DNA of 32,114 nt from Gammaproteobacteria bacterium. GTDB taxonomy: Bacteria > Pseudomonadota > Gammaproteobacteria > GCA-001735895. Shown here one piece after another: positions 16,112 to 31,943 of this stretch (the first letter of the stretch is position 1; each line of letters opens with the position of its first letter). The position numbers and the translations under genes are program-made. The notes beneath the pieces were generated by a model that made no database searches, was not told where the DNA came from, and was given only the letters and a program-made list of their open reading frames with translations. The DNA lies in the NCBI GenBank assembly GCA_029864185.1, contig JAOTTY010000009.1, positions 1-32,114 on the forward strand, read 5' to 3'.

Positions 16112-16123
16112 CGGAGAACCAAC

Positions 16124-17491
16124 ATGAGCAACCCCGATAAATTGAGCCGTCGCCGTTTTATCCAGGCAGGTGGGGCGGCGTTGGCGGGAAGCGCATTCGG
16201 CGCGACGCCGGCGACCGCCACGGCAGCCACAGCTGGGGATGCGAAGCAACCGACGGCGCCAGCCTTGCACAAGCTGTTGCGCAAGGCCGCCATCCCGGCA
16301 AGCAGGGGCGCGCGCGTCGTCGTCGTCGGCGGCGGCTGGTCGGGCCTGACCATGGCAAAGTACCTGAAGCGCTTCAATCCGGCATTCGATGTTGTCCTGA
16401 TCGACCGGCAGTCGGCTTTTGTTTCGTTTCCGGTCAGCAACGCGTGGCTCGCAGACCAGGTCACGCTCGAATTCCTGAGCCACAGTTTTTTCGAGGCGGC
16501 GAACAATCACGGCTACCTGTTCATGCAGGCGACTGCGCTTGGCTTCGACTTTGAATCGCGCCGGGTTTACACCGAGCAAGGTTACGTGGAATACGACTAC
16601 CTGGTGCTGGCGCCGGGCATCGAGTATGACTACTCCCGTATCGGCGTCGACGATACCGAGGCGCAAAACCTGTTGTTCCACCGCTACCCGGGCGGCTTCG
16701 TCACCAGTTCGGAGCTGCTGACCATCAAGCAGAAAATTCACCGCTTCAAGGGGGGCACATTCGTACTCACGGTGCCGAACGGCGATTATCGCTGTTCCGC
16801 GGCGCCGTACGAACGCGCGTGCATGGTCGCCGCCGTATTCAAGCGCCGCCGCATAAGCGCGAAAGTGCTGTTGCTTGACATGAATAGCGAAATCACGATC
16901 AAGAAGGCGGGCTTTTCGCGCGCTTTCGAACAGCTGTACGGCGATTTTATCGAGTACCTGCCCAGTTCCGAGATCAGCAGCGTCGATATAGAGGGGCGCC
17001 GTGTCGTGACCGAGTTCGATGAGTTCCCCTTCGATGACGCCATCATCTACCCGCCGGTGCGCGCGTCGAGCCTGATCGAGGAGGCCGGCATCGACAACCC
17101 GCAGGACTCGCAAAAAGCGGCCAACACCGATCCATTCCGTTACCACCTGGTCGACGACGAGCGCGTATACGTCACCGGCGACTCGCGTTCGCAGCCGTTC
17201 TCGAAAGGCGGTCACACCGCGCATTCGGAAGCGCAGTACGTGGCCGAGGTCATTGCCGCGCACGCGCTGGGCAGGGAAGTGCGCTGGCGCAGCCCGCAGA
17301 CCATGTGCTTTTCCGCGGTCGATATCGAGCCGCTCCGGGCGATGAGCATCATCACCTACTACAAGTTTGACAAGCAATCGGGATTGTTCGCCTTCGACCG
17401 CACTCACCTGATGGACAAATGGGATACCCAGGGCGGCCAGGCAAGCCTCGCCTGGGCCGAGGGGATGTATCGGGACATGTTTTACCTTTAG
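16124..17491 (+). CDS. fccB: Flavocytochrome c sulfide dehydrogenase-type flavoprotein (FccB/SoxF-like), Tat-exported
   Basis: This FAD-dependent oxidoreductase has 455 aa. LSRRRFIQAGGAAL at residues 7-20 is a twin-arginine signal, so it acts in the periplasm. VVVVGGGWSGL (65-75) is the FAD dinucleotide-binding motif. Cys224 in YRCSAAPYERA and Cys395 in TMCFSA match in context and spacing the redox disulfide of FccB (C161/C337 in Allochromatium numbering, from memory). The position of the FAD-linking cysteine (usual context SCPxSN) is Phe102 in SFPVSN, so flavin binding is probably non-covalent. The C-terminal ~70 residues form the FCSD dimer-interface domain. It pairs with the diheme cytochrome just upstream. 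Sulfide is the classical substrate, but the operon context leaves room for another sulfur or thiol donor. Confidence 0.82.
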   Translation: MSNPDKLSRRRFIQAGGAALAGSAFGATPATATAATAGDAKQPTAPALHKLLRKAAIPASRGARVVVVGGGWSGLTMAKYLKRFNPAFDVVLIDRQSAFVSFPVSNAWLADQVTLEFLSHSFFEAANNHGYLFMQATALGFDFESRRVYTEQGYVEYDYLVLAPGIEYDYSRIGVDDTEAQNLLFHRYPGGFVTSSELLTIKQKIHRFKGGTFVLTVPNGDYRCSAAPYERACMVAAVFKRRRISAKVLLLDMNSEITIKKAGFSRAFEQLYGDFIEYLPSSEISSVDIEGRRVVTEFDEFPFDDAIIYPPVRASSLIEEAGIDNPQDSQKAANTDPFRYHLVDDERVYVTGDSRSQPFSKGGHTAHSEAQYVAEVIAAHALGREVRWRSPQTMCFSAVDIEPLRAMSIITYYKFDKQSGLFAFDRTHLMDKWDTQGGQASLAWAEGMYRDMFYL

Positions 17492-17561
17492 CGAATCGCG
17501 GTTGCGCGACCAGAGTCGCACCCCCTTTCCGCTCTATAGCCTCGTGCTGCCTGTAGCTTTA

Positions 17562-17590
17562 TTGACCCTTATCAACCCCGCGATTTGAAT
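17562..17590 (+). promoter_or_regulatory. Candidate sigma70 promoter of the CBS-domain gene, with overlapping inverted repeats
   Basis: TTGACC (17562-17567) and TTGAAT (17585-17590) are 17 bases apart, about 50 bases before the ATG. The inverted repeat GCTTTATT (17556-17563)/AATAAAGC (17588-17595) brackets the promoter. A second one, CTTATC (17568-17573)/GATAAG (17596-17601), interleaves with it. These could be a regulator site. Confidence 0.5.
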
Positions 17591-17641
17591 AAAGCGATAA
17601 GCTTAAATTCCTGATCCTTTCAGAATTTCGAGGAGGCGGAA

Positions 17642-18091
17642 ATGCGTGTCGGCGAATTTTGTAATCGTGAAGTCGTGGTAATCGAAGCGGAGAGTTCCAT
17701 CACCGAAGCGGCACGAATCATGCGCGAGTACCACGTCGGCGACGTTGTGATCGTCAAAACCAGTTACGGGAAACAGACCCCGGTCGGTATTCTGACCGAT
17801 CGCGACATCGCGCTCGAGATCGTCGCCAAGGGGGCCGACCCGGAAATCGTGCAGGTCGGCGACGCGATGAGTTTCGAACTCGTCACCGTCGACGAGAACG
17901 ACGACCTGATGCATGCCATCGAAATCATGCGCGACAAGGGAATTCGCAGGGTACCGGTGGTCGATGCGGACGAAGCGCTGGTCGGGATCATGACCGTCGA
18001 CGACTTGCTGGACCTGCTCAGCGGGGTGTTCGTCGACATCGTGCACCTGGTCGACCGCCAGCGCCGACGCGAGACCAGGACGCGTCCCTAG
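17642..18091 (+). CDS. Stand-alone CBS-domain pair protein
   Basis: This 149-aa protein consists of two CBS motifs, residues ~5-62 and ~72-132, with little else. Such Bateman modules bind adenosyl nucleotides (AMP, ATP, SAM) and regulate partner proteins; free-standing ones have no enzymatic activity. GVLTDRD-like GILTDRDIA (~49-57) and the second-repeat GIMTVDDLL are the characteristic strand-helix ends with Asp residues that commonly contact ribose. A strong GAGGAGG precedes the ATG. It has its own promoter and is followed by a convergent receptor gene, so it appears monocistronic. No partner can be named from the neighbourhood. Confidence 0.87.
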   Translation: MRVGEFCNREVVVIEAESSITEAARIMREYHVGDVVIVKTSYGKQTPVGILTDRDIALEIVAKGADPEIVQVGDAMSFELVTVDENDDLMHAIEIMRDKGIRRVPVVDADEALVGIMTVDDLLDLLSGVFVDIVHLVDRQRRRETRTRP

Positions 18092-18135
18092 ATTTTGCTC
18101 GCCCGGTATGCAGGAGATGCGCCGCCAGGTACCGG

Positions 18136-20232
18136 TTAAAACCGGGTGCGCAGGCTGGCGCCGATGAACAGGTTACGCTCCGGGGCCGGTTCGAAATAGC
18201 GCCCGCCGAAAGCGTTGATGCGAATATTGCCGAAGTATTCTTCGTCGAACAGGTTATTGGCACCGACAAAAACCGAGCCCTCGAGATCCCGTGAAAAACC
18301 ATTATAGCCGGCGCGCAGATTGCTGACGGTGTAAGACTCGACCCTGACCTGGTTGGCGTTGTCGGCATATATTTCGCCGGTGTAAACGGCGTCCCAGGAT
18401 GCATAAAGGCCTGAATCACCAAACCAGGACAGACCCAGCCGCAGCAGGTCCCGCGGGATGCCGGGGATTCGATTGCCATCGAAGACGTCGCCGTCGGCGT
18501 CTTCGAATCGATGGAACACGAAATCCGACCAGGTATAGGCTGCCGACAACTCGAAATCGTCACCGAGCGCGCGGGAATAGGCGACTTCGAGCCCGTCCCG
18601 GTCGGAGGATCCGGCATTTTCGAAAAATACCCGGCCCGGCTGCGCCGGATCCTCGAACGGCGTCAGCTCGTCCTCGACATCGATATGAAAAATAGCCGCC
18701 TCGAAACGATGATTGCCGGCAAGCTTTTTGATCCCGATCTCGTAGTTGGTCGACAATTGCGGGTCCAGATCCTGGTTGAAGCCACCGCCCGAGGGATTTG
18801 CGAACTCGGTCGTGGTCGGCGTTTCGAAAGCGCTGGAAATGTTGGCATAAATCGTCGTATTACCGTCCTTGCTGAGACTGATCCCGATCATCGGACTGAC
18901 CTGGTCGAGATTCACTTTTCCGGAGTCGTCACCATCGCTCAAAAACCGGTCGGAGACATCGAACTCGACATCGTCGTAGCGCAGCCCCGCGGTGATTTCG
19001 ATCTCGTCGGTCAAGCGGATTTCATTCTGTAAGTATATCCCCAGCGACGTGACCAGTTCGTTCTGCTCGAAGGTTTGCGCACCGACGACCCCCTGCAGGT
19101 TATCGAAGCGGCTGCGATCATCGTCCTGGCGGTCATAATCGATTCCCGCCAGAAGCCTGTTACGCCTGCCGGCAAGCTCCCCGGCAACGATATACTTGAG
19201 CCCTCCCCCGGTCACGAGGCGATCCAGTTCGACCACGCCACCGCTTGCGAACGGGAGCCTGTTGCCGAAATCACGGCGGATCGTGTAAACCCTGGCCTCC
19301 AGATCCCGGCCGTCCCCGATCTGGGTTTTGTATAACATGCCGATTCGCGTCTGCGTAAGTGCCTCGCCCGCATCAAACAAAACGTTGTTGGTAAAAGCCT
19401 GCGTCGGATCGGCTGCCGCATCCGGCGCGCTAAGCGCGCCGGGATCGTTGGCCAACGGCTGGTCGGTGTGGTGCAGCGTCGTCAATAAACTGGATGTTGT
19501 CGACAGCGTGTATTCGAAGCGCCCGTTGAACTGGGTATTCTCATACTCGCTGTGATCGCGGTATCCGTCGATGGACGTGTCCGAGAGGTTCAGCAGGAAG
19601 TTCAGGTCGCCGGACTCGCCGCCGGTCTTGAGCTGCAATTTGTTAAAATCGAAATCGCCGGCAGTGGCACGCACCTCGGCGAAAGGCAGCACCGGGCCGC
19701 GCTCGGTTTCGATCAATATCGCGCCACCAGAAGCATTGCCGTAGAGCGACGACGCGGGCCCACGGATCACGCTGATCTGTCGCGCCGAGCCGAGATCGAT
19801 CCCGTCCACGGAGCCCTGACCGTCCGGGAGGGTCTCCGGTATCCCGTCGACCACTATGCGAATGCCGCGAATGCCGAAACTCGAACGGGCACCGAAGCCG
19901 CGAATCGATGCACGCAGGTCCTGCGCAAAATTATAGCGGTTGAGAAAGAATAAACCGGGAATCCCGCCCAGAGACTCATCCAGGCCGAGCTGTTCGGCGC
20001 CGAGCTGAATTTGATCCTGACCGACGACGCTGACCGCAGCCGGGATTTCGGCCGTGGTTTTCTCTACCCGCGTGGCGGTAACGGTGATCGGCTCGAGACC
20101 GGAAGCCCGCGTGATCGCGGGCGCTGCCACGATGATGCCAGCCAGTCCCGCGTAGAGCCATGTACTCGCATCGGGCATCCGCCACCACCGGCGACAATTC
20201 GGCAAAAGGCTTTCTCGGGTCGCGCTAGTCAC
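18136..20232 (-). CDS. TonB-dependent outer-membrane receptor
   Basis: This is an outer-membrane active importer of 698 aa. A signal peptide is followed by a TonB-box-like ITVTATR at residues 49-55, a plug domain (SIRGFGARSSFGIRGIRIVVDG..., ~75-175) and a 22-strand-type barrel ending in a terminal Phe (RTRF), as BamA substrates do. The first codon is GTG, three bases after the cytochrome gene stop; an ATG at 20178 would shorten the N-terminus by 18 residues and still leave a good signal peptide. The gene is last in a minus-strand unit after a PQQ-type dehydrogenase and a cytochrome c. It could therefore import PQQ, its metal or the dehydrogenase substrate. Siderophore uptake is the default alternative. 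Confidence 0.9.
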   Translation of the reverse strand: MTSATRESLLPNCRRWWRMPDASTWLYAGLAGIIVAAPAITRASGLEPITVTATRVEKTTAEIPAAVSVVGQDQIQLGAEQLGLDESLGGIPGLFFLNRYNFAQDLRASIRGFGARSSFGIRGIRIVVDGIPETLPDGQGSVDGIDLGSARQISVIRGPASSLYGNASGGAILIETERGPVLPFAEVRATAGDFDFNKLQLKTGGESGDLNFLLNLSDTSIDGYRDHSEYENTQFNGRFEYTLSTTSSLLTTLHHTDQPLANDPGALSAPDAAADPTQAFTNNVLFDAGEALTQTRIGMLYKTQIGDGRDLEARVYTIRRDFGNRLPFASGGVVELDRLVTGGGLKYIVAGELAGRRNRLLAGIDYDRQDDDRSRFDNLQGVVGAQTFEQNELVTSLGIYLQNEIRLTDEIEITAGLRYDDVEFDVSDRFLSDGDDSGKVNLDQVSPMIGISLSKDGNTTIYANISSAFETPTTTEFANPSGGGFNQDLDPQLSTNYEIGIKKLAGNHRFEAAIFHIDVEDELTPFEDPAQPGRVFFENAGSSDRDGLEVAYSRALGDDFELSAAYTWSDFVFHRFEDADGDVFDGNRIPGIPRDLLRLGLSWFGDSGLYASWDAVYTGEIYADNANQVRVESYTVSNLRAGYNGFSRDLEGSVFVGANNLFDEEYFGNIRINAFGGRYFEPAPERNLFIGASLRTRF

Positions 20233-20235
20233 CGA

Positions 20236-20568
20236 CTACTCGGGCAGTTCAACGGTGATCCTGATACTGGAATACCACTTCGCGACATTGTCGATATCGT
20301 CATCGGACAAGGCCTGGGCAATGATGGACATCTGCGGATGCTGGCGCTTACCCGCCCGGTAAGCCTTGAGCTGGATAATGATGTAGTCTTCGTTCTGACC
20401 GCTCAGGTTGGGCGACCCGGCGATGCTCGACCGACCATCCAGGCCATGGCAGGTCTGGCACACGGCCTGGGCCTTTGCCCTGCCTGCCCGCAGGTCTGCG
20501 GCGAATGTGTCAGCCGATAAAATCGCTGCCGTCAACAGTATCACTACGGCGCCGAATAAGTGCCTCAT
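20236..20568 (-). CDS. Small periplasmic monoheme cytochrome c (c553/c5-like)
   Basis: This 110-aa class I cytochrome has a Sec signal peptide (residues 1-23 end in TFA-A). The heme motif is CQTCH at 37-41 and Met80 (in QHPQMSII) is a likely sixth ligand. HGLDGRSSIAGSPNLSGQ is typical of c553-like electron carriers. It lies between a PQQ-type dehydrogenase (65 bases upstream, separated by a strong hairpin) and the receptor gene (three bases downstream). It is therefore the likely electron acceptor of the dehydrogenase. Confidence 0.88.
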   Translation of the reverse strand: MRHLFGAVVILLTAAILSADTFAADLRAGRAKAQAVCQTCHGLDGRSSIAGSPNLSGQNEDYIIIQLKAYRAGKRQHPQMSIIAQALSDDDIDNVAKWYSSIRITVELPE

Positions 20569-20589
20569 GAAATAAAGCCCCGGGTTGCG

Positions 20590-20622
20590 TGCGGACCGGC
20601 AGTTTTTCGCTGCCGGTCCGCA
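20590..20622 (-). promoter_or_regulatory. Perfect 13-bp intercistronic stem-loop
   Basis: TGCGGACCGGCAG (20590-20602) and CTGCCGGTCCGCA (20610-20622) are perfectly complementary with a seven-base loop. It lies just after the dehydrogenase stop and before the cytochrome ATG. No T run follows on the minus strand, so it is more likely an mRNA-stabilising or partial-termination hairpin than a full terminator. Confidence 0.65.
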
Positions 20623-20633
20623 TCGATTAACAA

Positions 20634-21908
20634 TTAATTCGCGTAGGAGATTCGATATACCGCGCCGGCCTTGTCGTCCGAGACCAGGATCGAACCATCA
20701 ACATACTGTTGCACGTCAACAGGCCTTCCGGAATAAACGCCGTTTTCCTGCAGCCAGCCTTCCGCAAAAGGCACGCTCGAGGCAGCATTGCCCTTATCAT
20801 CGAGAAAAGTCACCATGACCCGCGCGCCGCGCGGCTTGGTCGCATTCCAGGAACCATGCTGGGCGCTGAAGATGGCGTTCTTGTATCTCGCCGGAAACAT
20901 GTTGCCGGTGTAGAACATCATGCCGAGATCAGCGGCGTGGGCGATTGTTTCAACCTGCGCGTCCACATACTTCGACATCAGCGAATCGGGGATCTTCTTG
21001 TCCTTGTACTCGTTAGTGCGGACTTTGCCACCGCCGTAATAGGGATGCCCATACCAATTGCCGAAACCGGGCATACGGTTGATTTCGCCGGGCGGGGTCT
21101 CGTCGCCCATACCGTCCACCTGGTTATCGGTAAACCACAGGCTGCCATCCTTTGGATTGAAGGCGTGCCCAACAGAATTACGGATTCCCGTGGCGACCAC
21201 TTCACGGCCGGAGCCGTCACGATTCATCCGAATCATGCCGCCGATGCCGACCTTGTTATAAAGCTCCTGTTTATCGGGCGGAGAGACGTTGAACGGCTGG
21301 CCCAGGCTGATATAGAGCTTGTCGTCCGGGCCGATCGCGCAGACGCGCGCGGTGTGGTTGTAGGATTCCTCTTCCACCGGGATCAGCTTGCCCTGGGGCA
21401 CGATGGGCAGGGCAACCGTATCGGGGCTTTCCATGAAGAACTCTGCCGCCGGGAACATCATCACGCGATTGCGTTCGGCGACAAACAGAAATCCATCCGG
21501 TGAGTAGCAGACGCCATTGGGTATATCGAATTTTACGCTCGGGCTGAATTCTTCGACCGTATCGGCAACGTTATCCATATCCCGATCGGTCGCGGCCCAG
21601 ATCTTGCTTTTCTTGGTGCCGATCCAGACGGTGCCCTTGTTGCGCCCGACCGCCATATGACGGGCATCCGGCGCCAGCGCAAACAACTCGATCTTGAAAC
21701 CCTCCGGTAACCTGATGGTTTCGAGAACCTTGCGGATATTGTCCGCATATTTACCTTCCTGGGGGATGCTCTCTCCCCCACCGGTGCCGGTGGTTTTGAA
21801 AGCACCGAGCTTGCTCAGGTTGGCTTCATCGCCTGCGGCCAGGGCAGCCCCCCCGAGCAGCGGCAGCAGGGCGCAGGCGATCGATACTGCAAAATGTTTC
21901 AGTTTCAC
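20634..21908 (-). CDS. Periplasmic PQQ-dependent sugar/sorbosone dehydrogenase-family protein
   Basis: This is a beta-propeller protein of 424 aa with a Sec signal (cleavage near AALA-AGDE). Repeated blade motifs such as GVCYSPDGFLFVAE, AIGPDDKLYISLGQ, NSVGHAFNPKDGSLWFTDN and AIFSAQHGSWN match the soluble glucose/sorbosone dehydrogenase family. Members of that family bind PQQ and oxidise alcohols or aldoses. RIRNSVGHAF- and HGSWN-type motifs carry residues that usually line the cofactor site. It starts with GTG, nine bases after GGAGG. The downstream cytochrome c would accept the electrons. No pqq biosynthesis genes are in view, and the true substrate is unknown. Confidence 0.8.
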   Translation of the reverse strand: MKLKHFAVSIACALLPLLGGAALAAGDEANLSKLGAFKTTGTGGGESIPQEGKYADNIRKVLETIRLPEGFKIELFALAPDARHMAVGRNKGTVWIGTKKSKIWAATDRDMDNVADTVEEFSPSVKFDIPNGVCYSPDGFLFVAERNRVMMFPAAEFFMESPDTVALPIVPQGKLIPVEEESYNHTARVCAIGPDDKLYISLGQPFNVSPPDKQELYNKVGIGGMIRMNRDGSGREVVATGIRNSVGHAFNPKDGSLWFTDNQVDGMGDETPPGEINRMPGFGNWYGHPYYGGGKVRTNEYKDKKIPDSLMSKYVDAQVETIAHAADLGMMFYTGNMFPARYKNAIFSAQHGSWNATKPRGARVMVTFLDDKGNAASSVPFAEGWLQENGVYSGRPVDVQQYVDGSILVSDDKAGAVYRISYAN

Positions 21909-21984
21909 GATGATGATCCTCCGGTTGCATTGATTATGTTTTAATTAGCCGATTTATTGGCGACCACTACGTCGGCCAGGCCTT

Positions 21985-22013
21985 AGTATGCTCCCACAAA
22001 GGGCAATCTTCAA
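21985..22013 (-). promoter_or_regulatory. Candidate sigma70 promoter for the dehydrogenase-cytochrome-receptor unit
   Basis: On the minus strand TTGAAG (22008-22013) and CATACT (21985-21990) are 17 bases apart. The start codon lies ~77 bases downstream, in a gap that turns AT-rich. This would separate the unit from the upstream seven-gene run. Confidence 0.45.
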
Positions 22014-22029
22014 TCCGTCCGACCGAAGT

Positions 22030-23460
22030 TCAGATTGCGCCGGCCGACGACAGTTCATCACAGACCCGTGACACCGATTTGCCGACGATAGAGGCGATTT
22101 CATGCATGTCGTCACGCGTCGTGATCAGTGGCGGCGCGAATCCGAGTATGTCGCCATGCGGCATCGCCCGGGCGATCAGGCCATTATCAAGACAGGCGGC
22201 CGAAATTCTTGCACCGACTTTATGGCCGGCGTCGAAACGGACCTTTTTGCCGGGATCGGCGACAAACTCGATCGCGGCCAGCATGCCGGTTCCCCGGACC
22301 TCGCCGACGATGGGCGAATCCGCGACCGCCGCTGCCAGCGTGTCGCGCAGGGCGTCGCCGAGACCGGCGACCTGCTCGACGATTCCGTCGTGCTCGAGCA
22401 CGTCGAGGTTGGCGTTCGCCGCCGCCACGCAAATCGGGTGGCCGCTGTAGGTGTAGCCGTGCGAAAAGGCGCCTACCTCGTCAGAATGCGCCGATAATAC
22501 AGCGGCGACGCGTTCGCCGATCAGTACCGCGGACAGCGGCGCATAGGCCGAGGTGATGCCCTTGGCAACGGTAATCAGGTCGGGTTCGATACCATAGACC
22601 GACGCACCGAACCAGGCGCCGATGCGGCCGAACGCGGTGACCACCTCGTCGGCGATCAACAGTACGTCGTAGCGCTTCAGCACACGCTGGATTTCGTCCC
22701 AGTAGCCCGCGGGCGGCGGGATGATGCCGCCGGTGCCGAGCACCGGCTCGGCGATGAAGGCGCCGATCGTGTCGGGACCCTCGTCGAGAATCATCTTTTC
22801 GAGTTCCGCGGCGCGGCGCCTCGAGAATTCGGTCTCCGACTCGCCAGCCTCGGCGCCCCAGTAGTAATGTGGAACGCCCGTGTGCAGAATGCCGCCGACC
22901 GGCAAATCCATGTGCGCGTGGTAAAAGTTCATACCGGTCATCGAGCCGGAAACCACCGAGCATCCGTGGTAGCCTCGTTCGCGCGCGATAATTTTTTTCT
23001 TTCCCGGTTTGCCGATCAGGTTATGGTAGTGCCACACCAGCTTGGCCTGGGTTTCGTTGGCGTCGGAGCCGGACAGCCCGTAAAAAACCTTGCGCATATT
23101 GCCCGGCGCCAGGTCGACCAGCCGCTGCGACAGCCGCGCCAGCGCGCGCGTGGTATGACCCGCGTAGCAATGGTAATAGGCGAGCCGCCGCGCCTGCTCG
23201 GCAATCGCGTCGGCGACCTCGGTGCGGCCGTAGCCGATGTTGACGCAGTAGAGCCCGGCGAAGCCATCGATCGTGGTTTTACCCTCGGCGTCGGTGATGC
23301 GGATCCCCTGGCCGCTTTCGATGATGCGGGGACCGCCCATCTCGTCCGCCTCGAAGGCTCTTACCGGAGTAAAGGGATGCAGGGTTGCGGCGCGATCCAT
23401 CTTGGCCAGCGTCTCGATGGACGGTTCTTTCAGGGTGTTCTCTTTTACATTGGTGTTCAT
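22030..23460 (-). CDS. doeD: Class III PLP-dependent aminotransferase, DoeD/Atf-like
   Basis: This fold-type I aminotransferase has 476 aa. Lys300 in ITVAKGITS is the PLP Schiff-base lysine, Asp271 in LLIADEVV pairs with the pyridine nitrogen, and GSDANETQ (131-138) forms part of the phosphate site. It belongs to the omega-amino acid:pyruvate/diaminobutyrate transaminase branch. In ectoine catabolism DoeD converts L-2,4-diaminobutyrate to aspartate semialdehyde. Neighbouring TeaA-, DoeA- and DoeC-like genes in the same direction support that role. Taurine:pyruvate or GABA-type transamination is the main alternative. It is the last gene of the seven-gene run and is preceded by a 91-base gap. 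Confidence 0.72.
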   Translation of the reverse strand: MNTNVKENTLKEPSIETLAKMDRAATLHPFTPVRAFEADEMGGPRIIESGQGIRITDAEGKTTIDGFAGLYCVNIGYGRTEVADAIAEQARRLAYYHCYAGHTTRALARLSQRLVDLAPGNMRKVFYGLSGSDANETQAKLVWHYHNLIGKPGKKKIIARERGYHGCSVVSGSMTGMNFYHAHMDLPVGGILHTGVPHYYWGAEAGESETEFSRRRAAELEKMILDEGPDTIGAFIAEPVLGTGGIIPPPAGYWDEIQRVLKRYDVLLIADEVVTAFGRIGAWFGASVYGIEPDLITVAKGITSAYAPLSAVLIGERVAAVLSAHSDEVGAFSHGYTYSGHPICVAAANANLDVLEHDGIVEQVAGLGDALRDTLAAAVADSPIVGEVRGTGMLAAIEFVADPGKKVRFDAGHKVGARISAACLDNGLIARAMPHGDILGFAPPLITTRDDMHEIASIVGKSVSRVCDELSSAGAI

Positions 23461-23551
23461 AGGAATATCCAGGGTTCAGGTATCTGTATTTGTGAATTTA
23501 ACTTCGTCTCGATGAGGGTTCGAATAGCGTCATGCCAGGCGGAGATCGGTA

Positions 23552-24748
23552 TCAGTCTATGACGACCAGCCCGCGATGCACGTCGCACAGGCGCTCGCCG
23601 CCGCGGTCGGTCACGACAAAGGGCTCCGACACGGCGGCGCCAAACTTTTCCAGCCAGACGCCGGACTGAAAATGGAAACACATTCCGGTTTGCAGTTCGG
23701 TCTTGTCTCCGGGACGCAGGCTGGCCGTGCGCTCCCCCCAGTCGGGAGGAAAATTGAGGCCGATGGAATAACCGACACGGCTCTCCTTGCGATAACCGTT
23801 CCTGTTCAGCACCTTCTGCCAGACGGCCTCGACCGCCTCGCAGCTGACGCCGGGTCGCGCCACGCCGAGCGCGGCATCGACGCCTTCGACGATGACGCCG
23901 GCAAGGCGCTCGATTTCCACGGGCGGCTTGCCGAGGTGCATGGTTCGGGTCAATGGCGCATGGTAATGGCGGCGCGCGGCGCCGATTTCCATCACCACCA
24001 GCTCGTTGGCGGGCAGCGGCTCGTCGCTCCAGGTAAGATGCGGTGTGCTGGTCCCCTCGCCGACCTGTATCAACGGGCACAGGCTGGTGTAGTCGCCGAA
24101 CTTGTCCTCGAGGCCCAGTACCTGCGCCTCGTAAACGGCCGCGATAATCCGGTTTTGCGGGACGCCGGGTTCGAGCATGTCGATCACCCGGTTCATCGCC
24201 AGGCTGCAGATTTGGCCGGCTTCGCGCATGTAGGCCACCTCGGCATCGGACTTGATCAGCCTGACCCAGTTGACCAGTTCACGGTTGTCGGCGATGCGCG
24301 CATCCGGCAAACCATCGACGAGATGCCGATGCGCGCGCGCGGTGTAATAGTGGGCGTCGAGTTCTACCCCGATCGACGCATCGGCCCAACCGCGCTGCCT
24401 GATCAGAGCGCAAAGCTCGTCGTAGGGATGCGCGATGGGGTGGTGGACCAGGGGCTCGGAAAACGAAACGATGTTGTGCGCCGGCAGGTCGGTCGTGATA
24501 TGCGCCGATTTCGCATCCTGCGCGCGCCCGAACCAGATCGGTGTCGGCTCGTCGACATGAACCAGCAGGCATTGCGGCGTATAAAACGACCAGCCGTCGA
24601 AACCGCTCAGGTAACACATGTTGGCCGGATCCTGGCATAGGATCAGGTCGAAGCCGGCCTCACGCATGCGCGCCTTGACACGCGCCACCCGCGATTCATA
24701 TTCAGAGATGTCAAAAGGTTTCTGGTAAGGCACGGAACCCGGACTCAA
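23552..24748 (-). CDS. doeA: Creatinase/M24-fold hydrolase, ectoine hydrolase-like (DoeA/EutD)
   Basis: This 398-aa pita-bread-fold protein would open the ectoine ring to N-acetyl-diaminobutyrate. The N-domain contains NMCYLSGFDGWSFYTPQ. In the C-domain all five M24 metal-ligand positions appear changed: the first Asp is Glu254 (VVMEIGA), the second aligns with Pro265 (HAPLTRT), the His with Tyr327, a Glu with Gln361, and the last Glu is not in place. Metal-free chemistry is known for creatinase and EutD. EutD, as I recall, uses Glu255 covalently, and Glu254 lies at that position. GLNFPPDWGERTASLRPGD also recalls EutD/DoeA. The apparent start is TTG (24748), with a GTG five codons later; neither has a strong Shine-Dalgarno. 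It lies 18 bases after the aldehyde dehydrogenase. Confidence 0.75.
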   Translation of the reverse strand: MSPGSVPYQKPFDISEYESRVARVKARMREAGFDLILCQDPANMCYLSGFDGWSFYTPQCLLVHVDEPTPIWFGRAQDAKSAHITTDLPAHNIVSFSEPLVHHPIAHPYDELCALIRQRGWADASIGVELDAHYYTARAHRHLVDGLPDARIADNRELVNWVRLIKSDAEVAYMREAGQICSLAMNRVIDMLEPGVPQNRIIAAVYEAQVLGLEDKFGDYTSLCPLIQVGEGTSTPHLTWSDEPLPANELVVMEIGAARRHYHAPLTRTMHLGKPPVEIERLAGVIVEGVDAALGVARPGVSCEAVEAVWQKVLNRNGYRKESRVGYSIGLNFPPDWGERTASLRPGDKTELQTGMCFHFQSGVWLEKFGAAVSEPFVVTDRGGERLCDVHRGLVVID

Positions 24749-24766
24749 TCGGTGGAAGTTAAAAAT

Positions 24767-26263
24767 TCAGGCATAGTCGCGGCACACGTATTTTACCTCG
24801 GTAAACGCCTCCATTCCCTGGCGCGCACCCTCTCGCCCCAATCCCGACTGCTTCATCCCGCCGAAGGGTATCGGTGCGCCGGTCACCCTGGTGCGATTGA
24901 CGGCCACCATGCCGTACTGCAGGGCGCGGGTCAGCCGATAGATACGATGCGCATTTTCGGTGTGCACGTAGGCTACCAGCCCGTACTCGGTATCGTTGGC
25001 GCGACGCAGTGCCTCGTCTTCGTTATCGAATGGGGCGACTGCCGCCACGGGGCCGAAAGTCTCCTCCCTGAAAAGTAATGCGTCGGCAGAAACGTCGGCT
25101 AGCACCGTCGGCTGGAAAAACAATTCCCCCGCCGGGTGCCGCTGGCCACCGGTCAGAATACGGGCACCCTTCGCGACCGCGTCCCTGACATGCTCTACCT
25201 GTTTGGCCAGTGCCCCGGCGTTCATGAGAGGTCCGATGGCTGCATTGTCCAGGCCGTTGCCGACGCTGAGCGTCGCGGACCTATCGGCGAATTCCCGGCA
25301 AAACTCGTCGTAAACCGGACGCTCCACCAGAATCCGGTTGGCAGCCAGGCAATCCTGCCCCGAGGTAGCGAACTTGGCCGTTAACGCACAGTCGACCGCG
25401 TGCCCGAGGTTGGCATCGGCAAACACCAGGAACGGGGCGTGCCCGCCCAGTTCCATGACCATGCGTTTGATGGTATCGGCGCTCTGTCGAAACAGCAGGC
25501 GACCGACCTCGGTCGAACCGGTAAACGAAATAGCACGCACCAGTGGAGTATTCATCCATTCGGCAACGATCACCGGCGCGGTGCCCGGCAGGACGTTGAA
25601 GACACCTCTCGGAAAGCCGGCACGCTCGGCAATTCGCGCCAGTGCAAGCGCCGACAGCGGCGTTTCGGCGGAAGGGTGCGCGACGACGGTGCAGCCGGCC
25701 GCCAACGCCGCCGCCGCCTTGCGCGTCAGCATCGCGTGCGGAAAATTCCACGGCGTTATCAGGCCCGCGACGCCGAGCGGTTCACGCCAGACTTCGACCT
25801 CGGCGCCTTTCAGGTGCGAGGTCACGCCTTCGATGTTGGGACGCTTGGCTTCTTCGGAATAAAACTCGACGAAAGAGGCGCCATAATCGATCTCACCGCG
25901 CGATTCGTCCAGCGATTTACCCTGTTCCAGGGTCATCAACAGGGCGAGATCTTCCCTGCTTGCGAGGATCATGTCATTCCAGCGGCGCAGCACCCGCGCG
26001 CGTTCCTGTGGCAGCAAAAGCGACCATTCCCGGAAAGCGAGGTCGGCAGCCTCGACCGCGGCGCGGCTCTGGCCCGGGCCGATACTGGCCACCGACGCGA
26101 GCCGGCTGCCGTCCGCGGGATTGGTCACATCGAAGGTTTCGCTGCTTTCACCGTCGCACCACTCGCCATCGATGTAGGCGAGTTCACACAGCAGCTCCCG
26201 GTCTCTGAGCCGCTCGAGGAGCACATCCCGTGCCCTGGATGAAGAATCCCTGTTCATAACCAC
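24767..26263 (-). CDS. doeC: NAD(P)-dependent aldehyde dehydrogenase, semialdehyde type (DoeC-like)
   Basis: This enzyme has 498 aa and belongs to the succinate-semialdehyde dehydrogenase branch. Glu271 in MELGGHAP is the general base and Cys305 in SGQDCLAANR is the nucleophile. ITPWNFPHAM (169-178) and FTGSTEVGR (248-256) build the cofactor site. The lysine normally found in VVKPAxxTP, which contacts the adenosine ribose, is His196 here (VVAHPSAETP). In ectoine breakdown DoeC oxidises aspartate semialdehyde to aspartate, consistent with the adjacent aminotransferase. The first codon is GTG; an ATG two codons later (26257) may be the real start. Plain SSADH function in GABA use is the alternative. 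Confidence 0.78.
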   Translation of the reverse strand: MVMNRDSSSRARDVLLERLRDRELLCELAYIDGEWCDGESSETFDVTNPADGSRLASVASIGPGQSRAAVEAADLAFREWSLLLPQERARVLRRWNDMILASREDLALLMTLEQGKSLDESRGEIDYGASFVEFYSEEAKRPNIEGVTSHLKGAEVEVWREPLGVAGLITPWNFPHAMLTRKAAAALAAGCTVVAHPSAETPLSALALARIAERAGFPRGVFNVLPGTAPVIVAEWMNTPLVRAISFTGSTEVGRLLFRQSADTIKRMVMELGGHAPFLVFADANLGHAVDCALTAKFATSGQDCLAANRILVERPVYDEFCREFADRSATLSVGNGLDNAAIGPLMNAGALAKQVEHVRDAVAKGARILTGGQRHPAGELFFQPTVLADVSADALLFREETFGPVAAVAPFDNEDEALRRANDTEYGLVAYVHTENAHRIYRLTRALQYGMVAVNRTRVTGAPIPFGGMKQSGLGREGARQGMEAFTEVKYVCRDYA

Positions 26264-26304
26264 CAGACGCCTGTCCTGCGATTCACGCCAGCTCTATTTC
26301 CGAT

Positions 26305-26742
26305 CTAGACCACTAGTACCGGGCATTGCGCAAGGCTGGTCACCTTGTGCGAGACGCTGCCCAGCAGGTAACGGGTTGAATCGCTCATACCCCTGCTACC
26401 CATCACGATCAGGTCGATGTCGTGGTCTTCGCTGAACTTGACGATCATGCGCGATGGTCCACCTCCCATAAAAAATGAACGCACTTTCTCGACACCCTGC
26501 CCTTGCGCGTATTCCTTGCTCTTCTCGGCGACTTCCCTGGCATAGGCCTCGAGCGCCTCGTCGGTCGAGGCAGTCAACTCCTGGTTTACCATTGAAACCG
26601 AGGCTTTCCACAGGTTATGTTCGCGATAAACCGATAAAATCAGTAACTCGGCATCACACAGTTTCTGCAATTCGATGGCCTTATCAAGCGCCTGCTGGCC
26701 ACCCTGCGACCCGTCCACCGGCACCAGTATTTTTTTAAACAT
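26305..26742 (-). CDS. teaD: UspA-family ATP-binding protein (TeaD-like)
   Basis: This 145-aa universal stress protein has the ATP-binding signature G-x2-G-x9-G-S, spelled GSRGMSDSTRYLLGS in the last third. It is therefore of the nucleotide-binding type rather than the non-binding UspA type. It starts 12 bases after the large TRAP permease gene, with GGGAG before the ATG. The same position is occupied by TeaD in the Halomonas teaABCD cluster, where it modulates activity of the ectoine TRAP transporter. Regulation of the transporter by ATP status is inferred from that parallel. Confidence 0.85.
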   Translation of the reverse strand: MFKKILVPVDGSQGGQQALDKAIELQKLCDAELLILSVYREHNLWKASVSMVNQELTASTDEALEAYAREVAEKSKEYAQGQGVEKVRSFFMGGGPSRMIVKFSEDHDIDLIVMGSRGMSDSTRYLLGSVSHKVTSLAQCPVLVV

Positions 26743-26754
26743 TTCCGACTCCCG

Positions 26755-28041
26755 TCATTTGGCGAAGGCAACATCACGCAGGTACAGCGCGATCTGGGGA
26801 AAGAAAATCAACAATACCGCGACCAGCAGCAGGATAAACACGAAAGGTGGCGTACCCCGGATAACCTCCAGGTAGGGCACTTTGAAGACGGCGACCGCGG
26901 TAAATATATCGCAGCCGAAAGGCGGTGTCGCAGAGCCGATCGCCGCCTGCAACGTGATCAGCGTACCGACCAGAATCGGATCGAGCCCAGTGCTCTTGAT
27001 GGCCGGCGCGAAAATCGGCACCAGTATCAGGATCACGACGATTGGATCGACGAACATGCAACCGATGAAAAAGGCGATCGCGATAACGAACAGTACACCG
27101 GTCGGACCCATCTGGTCGATGCCGATGGCGCCGAGCAGTGCCTGAGGAATTTGCGCGAACGACAGCACCCAGGCGAAGGCCGCGCCGGCACCCACGAGTA
27201 TAAAGACCACGCCGGTAACCAGGCCGGTCGACTTCGCAATCGAGTAAAAGTCTTTTATCGTGATCGACCGGAATATGACGGTCTCGAGCAGCAGCGCGTA
27301 AAGCACGCTGACTGCGGCCGCCTCGGTTGGGCTGAAGATACCACCAAAGATACCGCCAACGATGATGACCGGAAAACCCAGCGGCCAGACCGCACGCCTG
27401 ATCGCGTCGAAACGCTCGCTCCAGCTTGCCGGTTCCTCGGTGGGCACCCTCTTGACGGTCGCGTAGATCATGCTGTAGATCGAGAACAGGGCGAGGATGA
27501 GTAGCCCGGGCCCTATTCCGGCGACGAACAGCTCCGGGATAGACGACTTCGAGACGACGCCGTAAATGATCATGCCGATACTGGGCGGGATCAGGAACGC
27601 AATGTCGCTGGAATTGACGATCAGCGCGAGGATGAAGGAGTCCTCGTAACCTCCCTTCTGCATGCGTGGACGCAACGGACTGCCGACAGCGACCACGGTC
27701 GCCTGGGTCGATCCCGACACCGCACCGAACAACGCGCAGGCAGACGAGGTGCTGACCGCGAGCCCACCCTTGATATGACGCACGAAGGCCATCACCATGT
27801 CGATCAGGCGATCGGCGGAATGGCCGCGCGTCATGATATCTGCGGCCAGGATGAACATCGGCACCGCAATCAGCGAGGCGGGCCGAATACCGCCGAGCAT
27901 CTGCTGCACCATGAACTCGGTTTTGCCGATATCACCGAACAGCGAAACGACCCCGATAAAGGCGCCGATGATGAGCGGAATCATCATCGGGAAACCGAGC
28001 AGCAGCAACACCAGCATTACCAGAAAGATTGCGATGGCCAT
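26755..28041 (-). CDS. teaC: TRAP transporter large permease, DctM/TeaC type
   Basis: This is the large membrane subunit of a tripartite ATP-independent periplasmic transporter, driven by a Na+ gradient in characterised systems. It has 428 aa with about 11-12 hydrophobic segments. Family landmarks are VPMFILAADIM, GAVSGSTQATVVAVGSPL and IPPSIGMIIYGVVS. The ATG at 28041 is used: GAGGTG precedes it and it lies two bases after the small-permease stop. The frame is open 44 codons upstream but overlaps the small permease gene and has no membrane character. It sits between the small permease and the UspA gene. Confidence 0.9.
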   Translation of the reverse strand: MAIAIFLVMLVLLLLGFPMMIPLIIGAFIGVVSLFGDIGKTEFMVQQMLGGIRPASLIAVPMFILAADIMTRGHSADRLIDMVMAFVRHIKGGLAVSTSSACALFGAVSGSTQATVVAVGSPLRPRMQKGGYEDSFILALIVNSSDIAFLIPPSIGMIIYGVVSKSSIPELFVAGIGPGLLILALFSIYSMIYATVKRVPTEEPASWSERFDAIRRAVWPLGFPVIIVGGIFGGIFSPTEAAAVSVLYALLLETVIFRSITIKDFYSIAKSTGLVTGVVFILVGAGAAFAWVLSFAQIPQALLGAIGIDQMGPTGVLFVIAIAFFIGCMFVDPIVVILILVPIFAPAIKSTGLDPILVGTLITLQAAIGSATPPFGCDIFTAVAVFKVPYLEVIRGTPPFVFILLLVAVLLIFFPQIALYLRDVAFAK

Positions 28042-28043
28042 GG

Positions 28044-28610
28044 CTACACCTCTATTTCCTGGGCTTCGTGCTCGTGCAGGTTGGTCGACAGGTAAATTTC
28101 CTTTTCGCGCAGGTTCTTGACCATCGTCAGCGCGTATTGCACACCGGTAACGAAAAACCCTACCGGCACCCACAGGTAGACCAGGTACACCGGCACGCCG
28201 AGAGCGGGCATAATTCGGCCCTTGGACTGGATGTTGAGAATGTACTCCACCGCGAACCAGGCCAGGAACAGCATGCAGAAGGCGGTGACCCCGGTAATTA
28301 TGGTCATAAGAATCTTGCGTGCCTTGTCCGGCATATGATCGTAAATTGCCGACATGCGAATATGACGGCCGTGCCTGGCCGCGTAGCCGACACCGGCAAA
28401 GGTCACCAGCAGGATAAACACGCTGTTGAGCTCCTCGGCGAATATGATCGAGTGATTGAAAACAAAACGACTGACCACGTTGACGATGGTGTTGACCGCC
28501 ATCAGGATCACGCCGGTCGCCATGATCAGTTCCTCTATTTTCGCGATCACCTGGTCGATCGCATCGAGGATCGATGCCACACCGCCGCGGTTGTTGCTGG
28601 TTTCGCTCAT
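28044..28610 (-). CDS. teaB: TRAP transporter small permease, DctQ/TeaB type
   Basis: This is a four-helix small membrane subunit of 188 aa. Helices lie roughly at residues 30-50, 65-85, 105-128 and 150-170. RHGRHIRMSAIYDHMP between helices 2 and 3 is a DctQ-family landmark (usually R-x2-H-I-R-V). A hydrophilic N-terminus of ~25 residues precedes helix 1. It is separated from the binding-protein gene by a 133-base gap with a strong stem-loop, and joins the large permease gene with two bases between stop and start. Confidence 0.87.
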   Translation of the reverse strand: MSETSNNRGGVASILDAIDQVIAKIEELIMATGVILMAVNTIVNVVSRFVFNHSIIFAEELNSVFILLVTFAGVGYAARHGRHIRMSAIYDHMPDKARKILMTIITGVTAFCMLFLAWFAVEYILNIQSKGRIMPALGVPVYLVYLWVPVGFFVTGVQYALTMVKNLREKEIYLSTNLHEHEAQEIEV

Positions 28611-28664
28611 AACATTACCCCGATCATGTATTGCGGTTAGCGTATTCGGCCGTGGAAAGCCCTT

Positions 28665-28697
28665 GCGGGGCCCTGTCCGAAATGGGCAGGGCCCCGC
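28665..28697 (-). promoter_or_regulatory. 14-bp intercistronic stem-loop between binding-protein and permease genes
   Basis: GCGGGGCCCTGTCC (28665-28678) pairs with GGGCAGGGCCCCGC (28684-28697), with one G-T wobble and a five-base loop. On the minus strand no T run follows. Between teaA and teaB it would stabilise the binding-protein message or cause partial termination. Either would give more binding protein than permease. Confidence 0.7.
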
Positions 28698-28749
28698 CAG
28701 GCGGGTGTTTAACAGATATCAGACCGGTCACATGGAACCAGTCGAAGAG

Positions 28750-29754
28750 CTATTTTCTGGCAGCCGCCAGGTCCTGCTTCATCTGCTCGATGATCTTGCG
28801 TCCACGCTCGCCGGCCTTCTCGATATAGGCTTGCTCGACCACCTTCGCGCGCTCCATGAACACGGCCCGCTCGGCATCGGTCAGCCGGTTGATCACCGCA
28901 TCCGGATTGGTATTCCTTATTTTCATCAGGCCGATCTCATCCATCTTTACCGCCGCGTCCAGAATGTAGTCCTGCGCGTGCGCGGCAGCATCCTGGATCA
29001 GTTTCTGATCGGCGGCGCTCAGGCCATCGTAGAAATCCGCGTTGGCCATCACCGCGGTGGTGTATTGCGCATGACCGGTATAGGTCAACACCGGCGCTAG
29101 ATTGTCGAGGTCGTAGGCCTCGATCCAGATCGCCGGATTTTCCTGGCCGTCGACCATGTTGGTTTTCAATGCGCCGATCAGTTCGCCCCAGGACATTGCA
29201 ATCGGCGACGCACCGAATGCCTTGTAGGTTTCCAGCAACAGCGGCGACGGCATGGTGCGAATCTTCATGCCCGTGAGTTCGTCGGGATTGCGAAACGGTT
29301 TCATCGTCGTGACCACCTGCTCACCCTCGGGAAAGACGGACAGCAGCTCCAGGCCGTGCTCACGATAGATTTCGTGGAACATTTCGTTGACCGCCTTGCC
29401 TTCCTTGAAGTACCTGCGCACTTCCTGGGGATCGGTGGGCTGCACGTAGGGCACCAGGAACGCTTCGGCTTCCGGGATCATCGCCCCGGTAAAGCCCGGC
29501 GACTGGTCGATAAACTGGATCAGTCCGGCAAGGGCCTGCTCCATCGCGTCGGCGGATTCGCCGAGAGCACCGACCGGGTAGATCTGGATGGTATGGTCCG
29601 AGTTCTGTTCGATGTAGGACTTGAACTGGGTCGCGTACATCCCCTGCGGATCGGTAAGACCCTCCTCCATGGCGTAGCGCCATTCGTCGGCTTGCACGAC
29701 GGTCGTCATGCCCAGGCCGAAAAGCAGGGCAAAAGCGGTTATTGATTTAAACAT
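28750..29754 (-). CDS. teaA: TRAP transporter substrate-binding protein, DctP family, ectoine-binding TeaA-like
   Basis: This is a periplasmic binding protein of 334 aa with a Sec signal ending at VVQA-DEW. It resembles TeaA along its length. Residues recalled as lining the TeaA ectoine pocket have counterparts: Glu31 (MEEG), Phe88 (SPGFTG), Arg166 (KIRTM), Trp189 (SWGEL), Trp210 (IWIEA), and Tyr231 where TeaA has Phe. Most of these keep a constant numbering offset of 22 to mature TeaA. This supports ectoine or 5-hydroxyectoine as ligand. GAGGAG precedes the ATG. It is the first gene of the seven-gene minus-strand run, divergent from the Lrp-type regulator, so it is likely induced by the osmolyte or a breakdown product. 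Confidence 0.82.
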   Translation of the reverse strand: MFKSITAFALLFGLGMTTVVQADEWRYAMEEGLTDPQGMYATQFKSYIEQNSDHTIQIYPVGALGESADAMEQALAGLIQFIDQSPGFTGAMIPEAEAFLVPYVQPTDPQEVRRYFKEGKAVNEMFHEIYREHGLELLSVFPEGEQVVTTMKPFRNPDELTGMKIRTMPSPLLLETYKAFGASPIAMSWGELIGALKTNMVDGQENPAIWIEAYDLDNLAPVLTYTGHAQYTTAVMANADFYDGLSAADQKLIQDAAAHAQDYILDAAVKMDEIGLMKIRNTNPDAVINRLTDAERAVFMERAKVVEQAYIEKAGERGRKIIEQMKQDLAAARK

Positions 29755-29966
29755 GATCTTCTCCTCGTTGGTTTTGTCTGATGTTGATTCGGATCGCTAT
29801 CGAACGTTATTTTTCCGTGATTGCCTGGACAATAGTCAGGCCAAACAACTGGGCTACGACGGGTTCACCAGCCGCTATGCAGCGTTTCCCGTCCGGTCTT
29901 TGTCCGCGATTGCCGGTAAACGGGGAAAGCTCAGACAAACCGGGCAAAAACCTCGACAACTCATTC

Positions 29967-29999
29967 TATTGAATTAATGTGCAATAATGCTGCGTATTG
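29967..29999. promoter_or_regulatory. Candidate Lrp/AsnC-type operator with three TATTG half-sites
   Basis: TATTG (29967-29971), CAATA (29982-29986) and TATTG (29995-29999) alternate in orientation with spacers of 10 and 8 bases. The middle copy overlaps a -10-like AATAAT (29983-29988), 40 bases before the regulator ATG. This fits autoregulation by an Lrp-family protein. The rest of this 273-base divergent region also holds a small GCCTG/CAGGC hairpin at 29823-29841. Confidence 0.45.
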
Positions 30000-30027
30000 A
30001 AAGCCACAAACGACGGATTTCTGCAAA

Positions 30028-30513
30028 ATGAGAGAAGACAGGGTCGATTCCAAGATCGACGCCATAGACAGACAATTATTGAAGCTATTGCAATGCGATG
30101 CACTGACCAGCACCGAGGCCCTGGGCGAAGCGGTTGGCCTGTCGGCGACCGCGGCCAAGCGTCGAGTCAATAAATTGCGCCAAAACGGTACCATCGTAAA
30201 GGATGTCTCGCTGGTCCAACCGGGTTGCCTCGGTTACGAGGTCTTCACGCTGGTACTGGTAGATCTCGAAAGGGATCGTCGGGATATCGTGCAGAACTTC
30301 AAGCGCGACATCGTCGACAATCCGCGCATCTTGCAGGCATTCTATACGACTGGCGACACCGATTTCGTGTTGCTCGTGGTATCGAAATCCCTGGGGGACT
30401 ACGAGAAATTCACCCAGTCTTTTTTCTGGGAGTCGCCTTATATAAAGAGTTTCAAGACCATGGTGATCATGGAAAACGTAAAGCTTGGTCTCGAGTTACC
30501 AATCGGCGAATAA
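30028..30513 (+). CDS. doeX: Lrp/AsnC-family transcriptional regulator (DoeX-like)
   Basis: This 161-aa protein has an N-terminal winged helix-turn-helix (residues ~10-62, LLKLLQCDALTSTEALGEAVGLSATAAKRRVNKL) and a C-terminal RAM ligand-sensing domain (~70-150). It is transcribed away from the TeaA-like gene. DoeX in Halomonas and AsnC-type regulators in EutABCDE clusters occupy similar positions and sense intermediates of ectoine breakdown. It probably controls the divergent uptake and breakdown genes through the half-sites found upstream. Its stop lies one base from the stop of a convergent XRE-type gene. Confidence 0.83.
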   Translation: MREDRVDSKIDAIDRQLLKLLQCDALTSTEALGEAVGLSATAAKRRVNKLRQNGTIVKDVSLVQPGCLGYEVFTLVLVDLERDRRDIVQNFKRDIVDNPRILQAFYTTGDTDFVLLVVSKSLGDYEKFTQSFFWESPYIKSFKTMVIMENVKLGLELPIGE

Positions 30514-30960: not shown

Positions 30961-31000
30961 TGCGCGGATCGATAACCAACATTCCCCAGCGGAGAAAAAT

Positions 31001-31840: not shown

Positions 31841-31841
31841 A

Positions 31842-31890
31842 CCAGGATTCCCTGGATATACCGCCGGCGATTGAAGCGGTGCCCGTTTTT
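31842..31890 (+). terminator. Possible weak terminator after the NYN gene
   Basis: CCAGG-ATTC-CCTGG (31842-31855) is followed by ACCGC (31860-31864)/GCGGT (31876-31880), and then by a run of five T at 31886-31890. The stems are short and the T run is five bases past the second stem. Confidence 0.3.
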
Positions 31891-31943
31891 CTCCCGCCGT
31901 TGCGAATTGGTTGGATGCTTCTCTAGTTTGCGAACATGAAAAA

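What the first reader, a model, noticed from the sequence alone, without database searches (positions are those of the whole stretch)
22030..30513. Ectoine-type osmolyte uptake and breakdown locus lacking the deacetylase
Seven co-directional genes plus a divergent Lrp-type regulator combine TeaABCD-like TRAP uptake with DoeC-, DoeA- and DoeD-like enzymes. Known ectoine catabolism needs DoeB/EutE to deacetylate the DoeA product, and hydroxyectoine use needs EutABC; none is here. Either these genes lie elsewhere, or the pathway handles a related substrate (a guanidino or cyclic amidine compound) or uses a different deacylation route.
Basis: partly seen in the sequence, partly recalled or inferred. 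Interest (0 to 1): 0.75.

Follow-up and report, generated by a model that had tools for sequence, protein, structure and literature searches.

The report
Ectoine uptake-breakdown operon with divergent hydrolase
A marine-type gammaproteobacterium carries an operon for importing and breaking down the salt-protectant ectoine; the "missing" deacetylase is elsewhere in its genome, and the unusual part is a second, divergent ectoine-ring-opening enzyme whose gene sits inside the transporter operon only in this genome among its sampled relatives.

Summary
The gene anatomy is real: teaABCD (TRAP uptake), an ssd/doeC-type dehydrogenase, a DoeA-like M24 enzyme and an aminotransferase run in one direction, with a divergent Lrp. 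The claimed gap is not real at genome level. Contig C404 of the same genome encodes DoeA, DoeB, EutB and EutC, all above their curated cut-offs, and no ssd, atf or transporter was found there. The two loci complement each other, and the doeA-doeB pair is near-universal in the genus.

The interesting part is the window's M24 protein ("M24v"). It lies outside the canonical DoeA clade (about 40% identity; 404 bits against a 613-bit cut-off) in a strongly supported sister clade, but keeps the DoeA fold and the residues invariant in DoeA, including the putative nucleophile Glu255. Elsewhere this clade often sits in ectoine clusters with DoeB, EutBC and Ehu. In nine genomes it is the only DoeA-like protein and has DoeB in its cluster. 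In congeners tea-ssd-atf lacks M24v, and M24v stands alone at an FCSD-NYN site; the window interleaves the two at gene boundaries.

Best reading: an ectoine/hydroxyectoine operon with a recruited second hydrolase, relying on DoeB in trans. Substrate untested.

The parts
28750..29754 (-). teaA/uehA-like TRAP substrate-binding protein (DctP)
   Evidence: phmmer 1.7e-108 to H. elongata TeaA (3gyy), 51% identity to 2vpn and to UehA 3fxb
28044..28610 (-). teaB-like TRAP small permease (DctQ)
   Evidence: Pfam DctQ 5e-28; 48% to the TRAP small permease of the Leisingera ueh-eut cluster
26755..28041 (-). teaC-like TRAP large permease (DctM)
   Evidence: Pfam DctM 3e-104; 76% to the TRAP large permease of the Leisingera ueh-eut cluster
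26305..26742 (-). teaD-like universal stress protein
   Evidence: Pfam Usp; 51% to the usp of the Leisingera ueh cluster
24767..26263 (-). aldehyde dehydrogenase of Ssd/DoeC type
   Evidence: SSADH family; 67% to Ssd of the annotated Leisingera ueh-eut cluster, 63% to Ssd of the annotated Rhizobium eut cluster
23552..24733 (-). DoeA-like M24 hydrolase of a sister clade (M24v); GTG start at 24733
   Evidence: TIGR02993 404 bits, cut-off 613; tree; residues; AlphaFold model closest to DoeA, TM 0.90; dN about 0.06 against dS about 1.0 to same-genus copies
22030..23460 (-). class III aminotransferase of Atf/DoeD role (PRK07482 subfamily)
   Evidence: 740 bits to PRK07482, cut-off 687; 52-53% to Atf of annotated ectoine clusters, 64-67% to a related subfamily beside another DoeA-like M24 in Mesorhizobium or in other contexts
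30028..30513 (+). divergent Lrp/AsnC-family regulator
   Evidence: Pfam HTH_AsnC and AsnC_trans_reg; divergent from teaA in two congeners with the tea-ssd-atf operon
17491..23550 (.). segment (TonB receptor, GSDH-like gene, atf) absent from the FCSD-M24v-NYN locus of congeners
   Evidence: blastn gap against L159 and L160
24735..30990 (.). segment (ssd, teaABCD, lrp, XRE gene) absent between M24v and NYN in congeners
   Evidence: blastn gap against L159, L160 and L165

Best explanation
This is the uptake-and-finishing half of an ectoine/hydroxyectoine catabolic pathway split over two loci. TeaABCD imports ectoine (inferred). DoeA on contig C404 and/or the window's DoeA-like M24v open the ring to N-alpha-acetyl-diaminobutyrate; EutB and EutC (C404) serve hydroxyectoine. 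DoeB (C404) removes the acetyl group. The window's aminotransferase and Ssd convert diaminobutyrate through aspartate semialdehyde to aspartate. Lrp/AsnC regulates. M24v belongs to an uncharacterised sister clade of DoeA, most likely a second ectoine-type hydrolase (perhaps preferring hydroxyectoine) that hands its product to DoeB in trans. In this genome it lies inside the tea-ssd-atf operon. Shown: gene content, presence of DoeB, clade position, synteny, conserved residues. Inferred: substrates, reaction, co-transcription.
For: DoeB and DoeA at C404 over their cut-offs, same-genus copies in most genomes. EutB/EutC over cut-off. No Atf, Ssd or transporter homologue found on the fetched 20 kb of the 22-kb C404 contig. 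Tea-ssd-atf-lrp without M24v in two congeners that also have doeA-doeB. M24v clade beside DoeB in about 20 of 82 loci, EutB/C in about 17, EhuA-type genes in 43. Nine genomes with M24v as the only DoeA-like protein and DoeB in the same cluster. Glu255, His238, His361, Glu377, Tyr52 (6twk numbering) and about 100 other positions shared with DoeA. Fold closest to substrate-bound DoeA, TM 0.90 against 0.77 for creatinase. Strong purifying selection on the operon copy.
Against: M24v misses the DoeA family cut-off and clade. 26 positions are near-fixed but different between the clades, some close in sequence to putative active-site residues (T359C, M363Q, E374A), so specificity may differ. Other M24v loci lie beside a second M24 gene and sarcosine oxidase genes, or M20 deacylases, hinting at other substrates. 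The genome already has a canonical DoeA. MAG contamination is 5.5%.
Confidence: 0.7

Rival explanations
1. The operon (or M24v at least) handles a different but related compound, such as an N-methylated or guanidino/cyclic amidine osmolyte; the DoeA resemblance is chemical only, and a non-DoeB deacylase or none is needed.
For: M24v is outside the DoeA clade. About 20 of 82 relatives have sarcosine oxidase genes, mostly with a second M24 gene, next to M24v, most of them without DoeB; Mesorhizobium L084 has an ArgE/DapE-type deacylase in the same stretch. The window aminotransferase is closer to a non-canonical subfamily.
Against: TeaA, TeaC and Ssd are close to ueh/ectoine cluster proteins. M24v replaces DoeA next to DoeB, EutBC and Ehu in many genomes. 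Residues invariant in DoeA, including the putative nucleophile, are kept.
Confidence: 0.2
2. An ordinary ectoine operon in which M24v is redundant or decaying: canonical DoeA/DoeB on C404 do all the ring opening and M24v has no distinct role.
For: Canonical DoeA is present; two same-genus tea operons lack M24v.
Against: dN about 0.06 against dS about 1.0 shows strong constraint; intact frame; position between ssd and atf keeps it in the operon.
Confidence: 0.08
3. The interleaving of M24v with tea-ssd-atf is an assembly chimera; the true genome has a free-standing M24v and a separate tea-ssd-atf operon as in congeners.
For: MAG with 439 contigs and 5.5% contamination; none of the 30 congeners shows the same junctions; in congeners the two modules lie at separate sites.
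Against: Two interleavings at gene boundaries in one contig; the matching segments have same-genus best matches; M24v lost its own 5' region and the Shine-Dalgarno-like stretch seen in congeners and sits 33 bp behind ssd, unlike a random join.
Confidence: 0.07

Closest known systems
[quoted passage not shown]
   Same: TRAP transporter plus usp, a DoeA-fold hydrolase, ssd, atf and an asnC/lrp gene in one locus
   Different: The window has no eutE or eutABC (they are elsewhere), lrp is divergent, and its hydrolase is from the sister clade
teaABCD and doe genes of Halomonas elongata
   Same: TeaA 51% identical; usp-type teaD; DoeA/DoeC/DoeD-type enzymes
   Different: In H. elongata the transporter and catabolic genes lie apart; here tea, ssd and atf share an operon while doeA-doeB lie apart
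EutD/DoeA ectoine hydrolase (PDB 6twj, 6twk, 6yo9; TIGR02993)
   Same: M24 pita-bread fold (TM 0.90), shared invariant residues including Glu255, no canonical M24 metal-ligand set by alignment
   Different: About 40% identity, 404 against 613 bits, separate clade, 26 clade-specific substitutions
Creatinase (creatine amidinohydrolase, 1chm)
   Same: Same M24 fold
   Different: TM 0.77 and about 20% identity only; not close

Membership tests
DoeA/EutD ectoine hydrolase (TIGR02993 equivalog) | Score at or above the curated cut-off of 613 bits | tested here: not met
   404 bits; the genome's own C404 DoeA scores 639
DoeA/EutD ectoine hydrolase (TIGR02993 equivalog) | Falls in the clade of characterised DoeA (6twk) | tested here: not met
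   Sister clade of 50 rows, SH-aLRT 99; canonical clade 12 rows, 100
DoeA/EutD ectoine hydrolase (TIGR02993 equivalog) | DoeA fold and invariant active-site residues including Glu255 | tested here: met
   Foldseek TM 0.90 to 6twk/6yo9; E255, H238, H361, E377, Y52 shared. The role of Glu255 is from memory of Mais et al. 2020, not read here
DoeA/EutD ectoine hydrolase (TIGR02993 equivalog) | Partner DoeB in the genome | tested here: met
   C404:6589-7563, 503 bits against 402.7; in the same cluster as M24v in about 20 of 82 relatives
DoeA/EutD ectoine hydrolase (TIGR02993 equivalog) | Hydrolyses ectoine/hydroxyectoine to (hydroxy-)alpha-ADABA | not testable with these tools
   Needs enzyme assay
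TeaABC/UehABC ectoine TRAP transporter | SBP closest to TeaA/UehA among solved SBPs | tested here: met
   Top three PDB matches are TeaA and UehA (E 1e-104 to 1e-108), next 4e-41
TeaABC/UehABC ectoine TRAP transporter | Ligand-site residues conserved | tested here: inconclusive
   E9, F66, W167, W188 identical to 2vpn, F209 is Tyr; which residues touch ectoine is from memory
TeaABC/UehABC ectoine TRAP transporter | Binds ectoine | not testable with these tools
   Needs binding assay
Ectoine Ssd/DoeC | Close to Ssd of annotated ectoine clusters | tested here: met
   67% to Leisingera, 63% to Rhizobium Ssd
Ectoine Atf/DoeD | Groups with Atf of annotated ectoine clusters | tested here: inconclusive
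   52-53% to canonical Atf, 64-67% to another subfamily; tree unresolved

The most novel reading that the evidence does not exclude
M24v founds a second, unnamed class of ectoine-type ring hydrolase (hydroxyectoine- or derivative-specific) that is the only DoeA-like enzyme in a set of marine and soil bacteria. Its clusters carry EutA, PhyH dioxygenases and a threonine-aldolase-type enzyme, or sarcosine oxidase, which would be alternative routes for hydroxyectoine or a modified ectoine, and the window records the gene joining a tea-ssd-atf operon.
Probability: 0.4. Interest if true: 0.65.

Novelty: new variant of a known kind. Interest (0 to 1): 0.45.

Why it matters
Ectoines are abundant marine nitrogen and carbon compounds. 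In the annotated records seen here the M24v clade is called only "M24 family metallopeptidase", yet it sits in clusters with DoeB and is the only DoeA-like protein in several genomes, so surveys that require canonical DoeA may miss ectoine consumers. The case also warns against inferring pathway gaps from one contig, and shows one operon with and without an extra enzyme among congeners.

Tried and rejected
(1) Missing DoeB: rejected, found on C404 and in most congeners. (2) DoeB as a contaminant: unlikely, since doeA-doeB copies of 82-90% DoeA identity occur across the genus. (3) M24v as creatinase or prolidase: rejected by profile scores, tree and fold. (5) The EutD structure paper (Mais et al. 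2020) is not held, so residue roles rest on memory. (6) A literature search for TeaA ligand residues found nothing. (7) My first ORF-clustering of the neighbourhoods was swamped by shadow ORFs and was replaced by reference-based annotation.

Full report
Observation. The eight genes are real and intact: teaA (28750-29754), teaB (28044-28610), teaC (26755-about 28041), teaD/usp (26305-26742), ssd-type ALDH (24767-26263), M24 (23552-24733) and an aminotransferase (22030-23460), all on the - strand, with a divergent Lrp/AsnC (30028-30513). Sequence similarity far exceeds chance, e.g. TeaA 1.7e-108 to H. elongata TeaA.

The gap. The window is contig C293 of a 4.35-Mb MAG (97% complete, 5.5% contaminated). 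Contig C404 of the same genome carries eutB (470 bits, cut-off 413), eutC (500, cut-off 472), doeA/eutD (639, cut-off 613) and doeB/eutE (503, cut-off 403), plus a second cyclodeaminase-like gene. Two EutA-like proteins (209 and 199 bits, cut-off 318) are elsewhere. No Atf, Ssd or transporter homologue was found on the fetched 20 kb of C404; the window supplies them. Of 31 genomes of this genus, 24 have DoeB over the cut-off, nearly all beside canonical DoeA, so this is not stray contamination. Published surveys already note clusters with separated or absent eutE (PMC13188858; PMC8739950).

What the M24 protein is. It scores 404 bits to the DoeA model (cut-off 613) and is about 40% identical to the genome's own DoeA. 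In a maximum-likelihood tree it falls in a 50-row clade (SH-aLRT 99) outside the canonical DoeA clade (12 rows, 100); haloarchaeal and other DoeA-like groups lie nearby. Yet about 100 positions are near-invariant in both clades, including the residue equivalent to DoeA Glu255, and 26 positions are fixed differently. An AlphaFold model (pLDDT 86) is closest to substrate- and product-bound DoeA (TM 0.90), well ahead of creatinase (0.77) and prolidases (0.78 or less). That Glu255 forms the covalent intermediate is from my memory of Mais et al. 2020; the paper is not in the library.

Context of the clade. Among 82 loci, M24v has EhuA-type genes in 43, DoeB in 20, EutC in 17, EutB in 16, EutA in 10 and threonine-aldolase-like genes in 10 (low-identity EhuA matches may be other ABC ATPases, so that count is an upper bound). 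Example: Mesorhizobium NZP2077 has eutB, eutC, doeB, an EutA-like gene, M24v, an aldolase, ehuD and ehuA in one stretch. Of 25 genomes tested, nine have exactly one DoeA-like protein at E <= 1e-60, the M24v, with DoeB in the same cluster (G061, G063, G066, G067, G073-G077), including isolates of Taklimakanibacter, Dongia and Cereibacter. This is the strongest evidence that M24v does DoeA's job there. Against it, about 20 loci (Mesorhizobium, Shinella and others) pair M24v with another M24 protein and sarcosine oxidase, and Mesorhizobium L084 has an ArgE/DapE-type deacylase, so the clade's substrates may vary.

How the window operon arose. TeaA occurs in 4 of 31 genus members. In G017 and G005 the operon is lrp< teaA>B>C>usp>ssd>atf> without M24v. 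In G015 and G017, and as far as its short contig shows in G028, M24v is free-standing next to FCSD and NYN genes. DNA comparison shows the window to be an exact interleaving: 14621-17490 (FCSD), 23551-24734 (M24v) and 30991-32113 (NYN) match the free-standing locus, and the segments between match the tea operon plus extra genes. Congeners have a Shine-Dalgarno-like stretch before the M24v GTG; the window has lost that upstream region, and the GTG lies 33 bp after the ssd stop, suggesting co-transcription (inferred). dN about 0.06 and dS about 1.0 show that the gene is maintained. None of the 30 other genus genomes has the same junctions, so an assembly chimera cannot be wholly excluded, and the direction of change (capture here or separation elsewhere) is not settled.

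Mechanism and confidence. Most likely TeaABCD imports ectoine/hydroxyectoine, DoeA and/or M24v open the ring, DoeB (in trans) deacetylates, and Atf then Ssd give aspartate, under Lrp control. Gene presence and relationships are shown; substrates, co-transcription and regulation are inferred.

Verdict. The headline (pathway without deacetylase) is explained by genes elsewhere in the genome. What remains of interest is the unnamed DoeA sister clade and its place in this operon: a new variant of a known kind, interest about 0.45.

Noticed in passing
G000:C310:7970-8341 (L190 4968-5354): An ectoine synthase (EctC) gene without EctA or EctB matches among its scanned neighbours; possibly an orphan ectC.
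   Followed up: partly
L023, L025, L026, L030, L037, L093: M24v clusters with DoeB, an EutA-like gene (most of them), PhyH-type dioxygenases (several) and a GntG-like threonine aldolase: possibly an aldolase route for 3-hydroxy-diaminobutyrate from hydroxyectoine.
   Followed up: partly
L055, L061-L069, L071, L073, L075, L077, L080, L094: M24v followed by a second M24 gene and sarcosine oxidase genes, divergent from ehuABCD-like genes; substrate unclear, perhaps an N-methylated compound.
   Followed up: no
L173 and L174 (Rhizobium and Sinorhizobium plasmids): A DoeA-like M24 (45%) in an operon with an M20 aminoacylase, an ABC transporter and a DUF2817 protein: a possible alternative deacylation cluster.
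   Followed up: no
L171 and L172 (haloarchaeal plasmids): DoeA-like M24 proteins (46-48% to the window protein) next to gdhB; an aminotransferase and a BCCT transporter are also near in L171.
   Followed up: no
G000:C324:18677-20676 (L191 3678-5677): A distant M24 protein (103 bits to DoeA model) divergently adjacent to an EutA-like gene, unexplained.
   Followed up: partly
window 18136-21908: TonB-dependent receptor-like gene and a glucose/sorbosone dehydrogenase-like gene downstream of atf, in the segment absent from the congeners' M24v locus.
   Followed up: no
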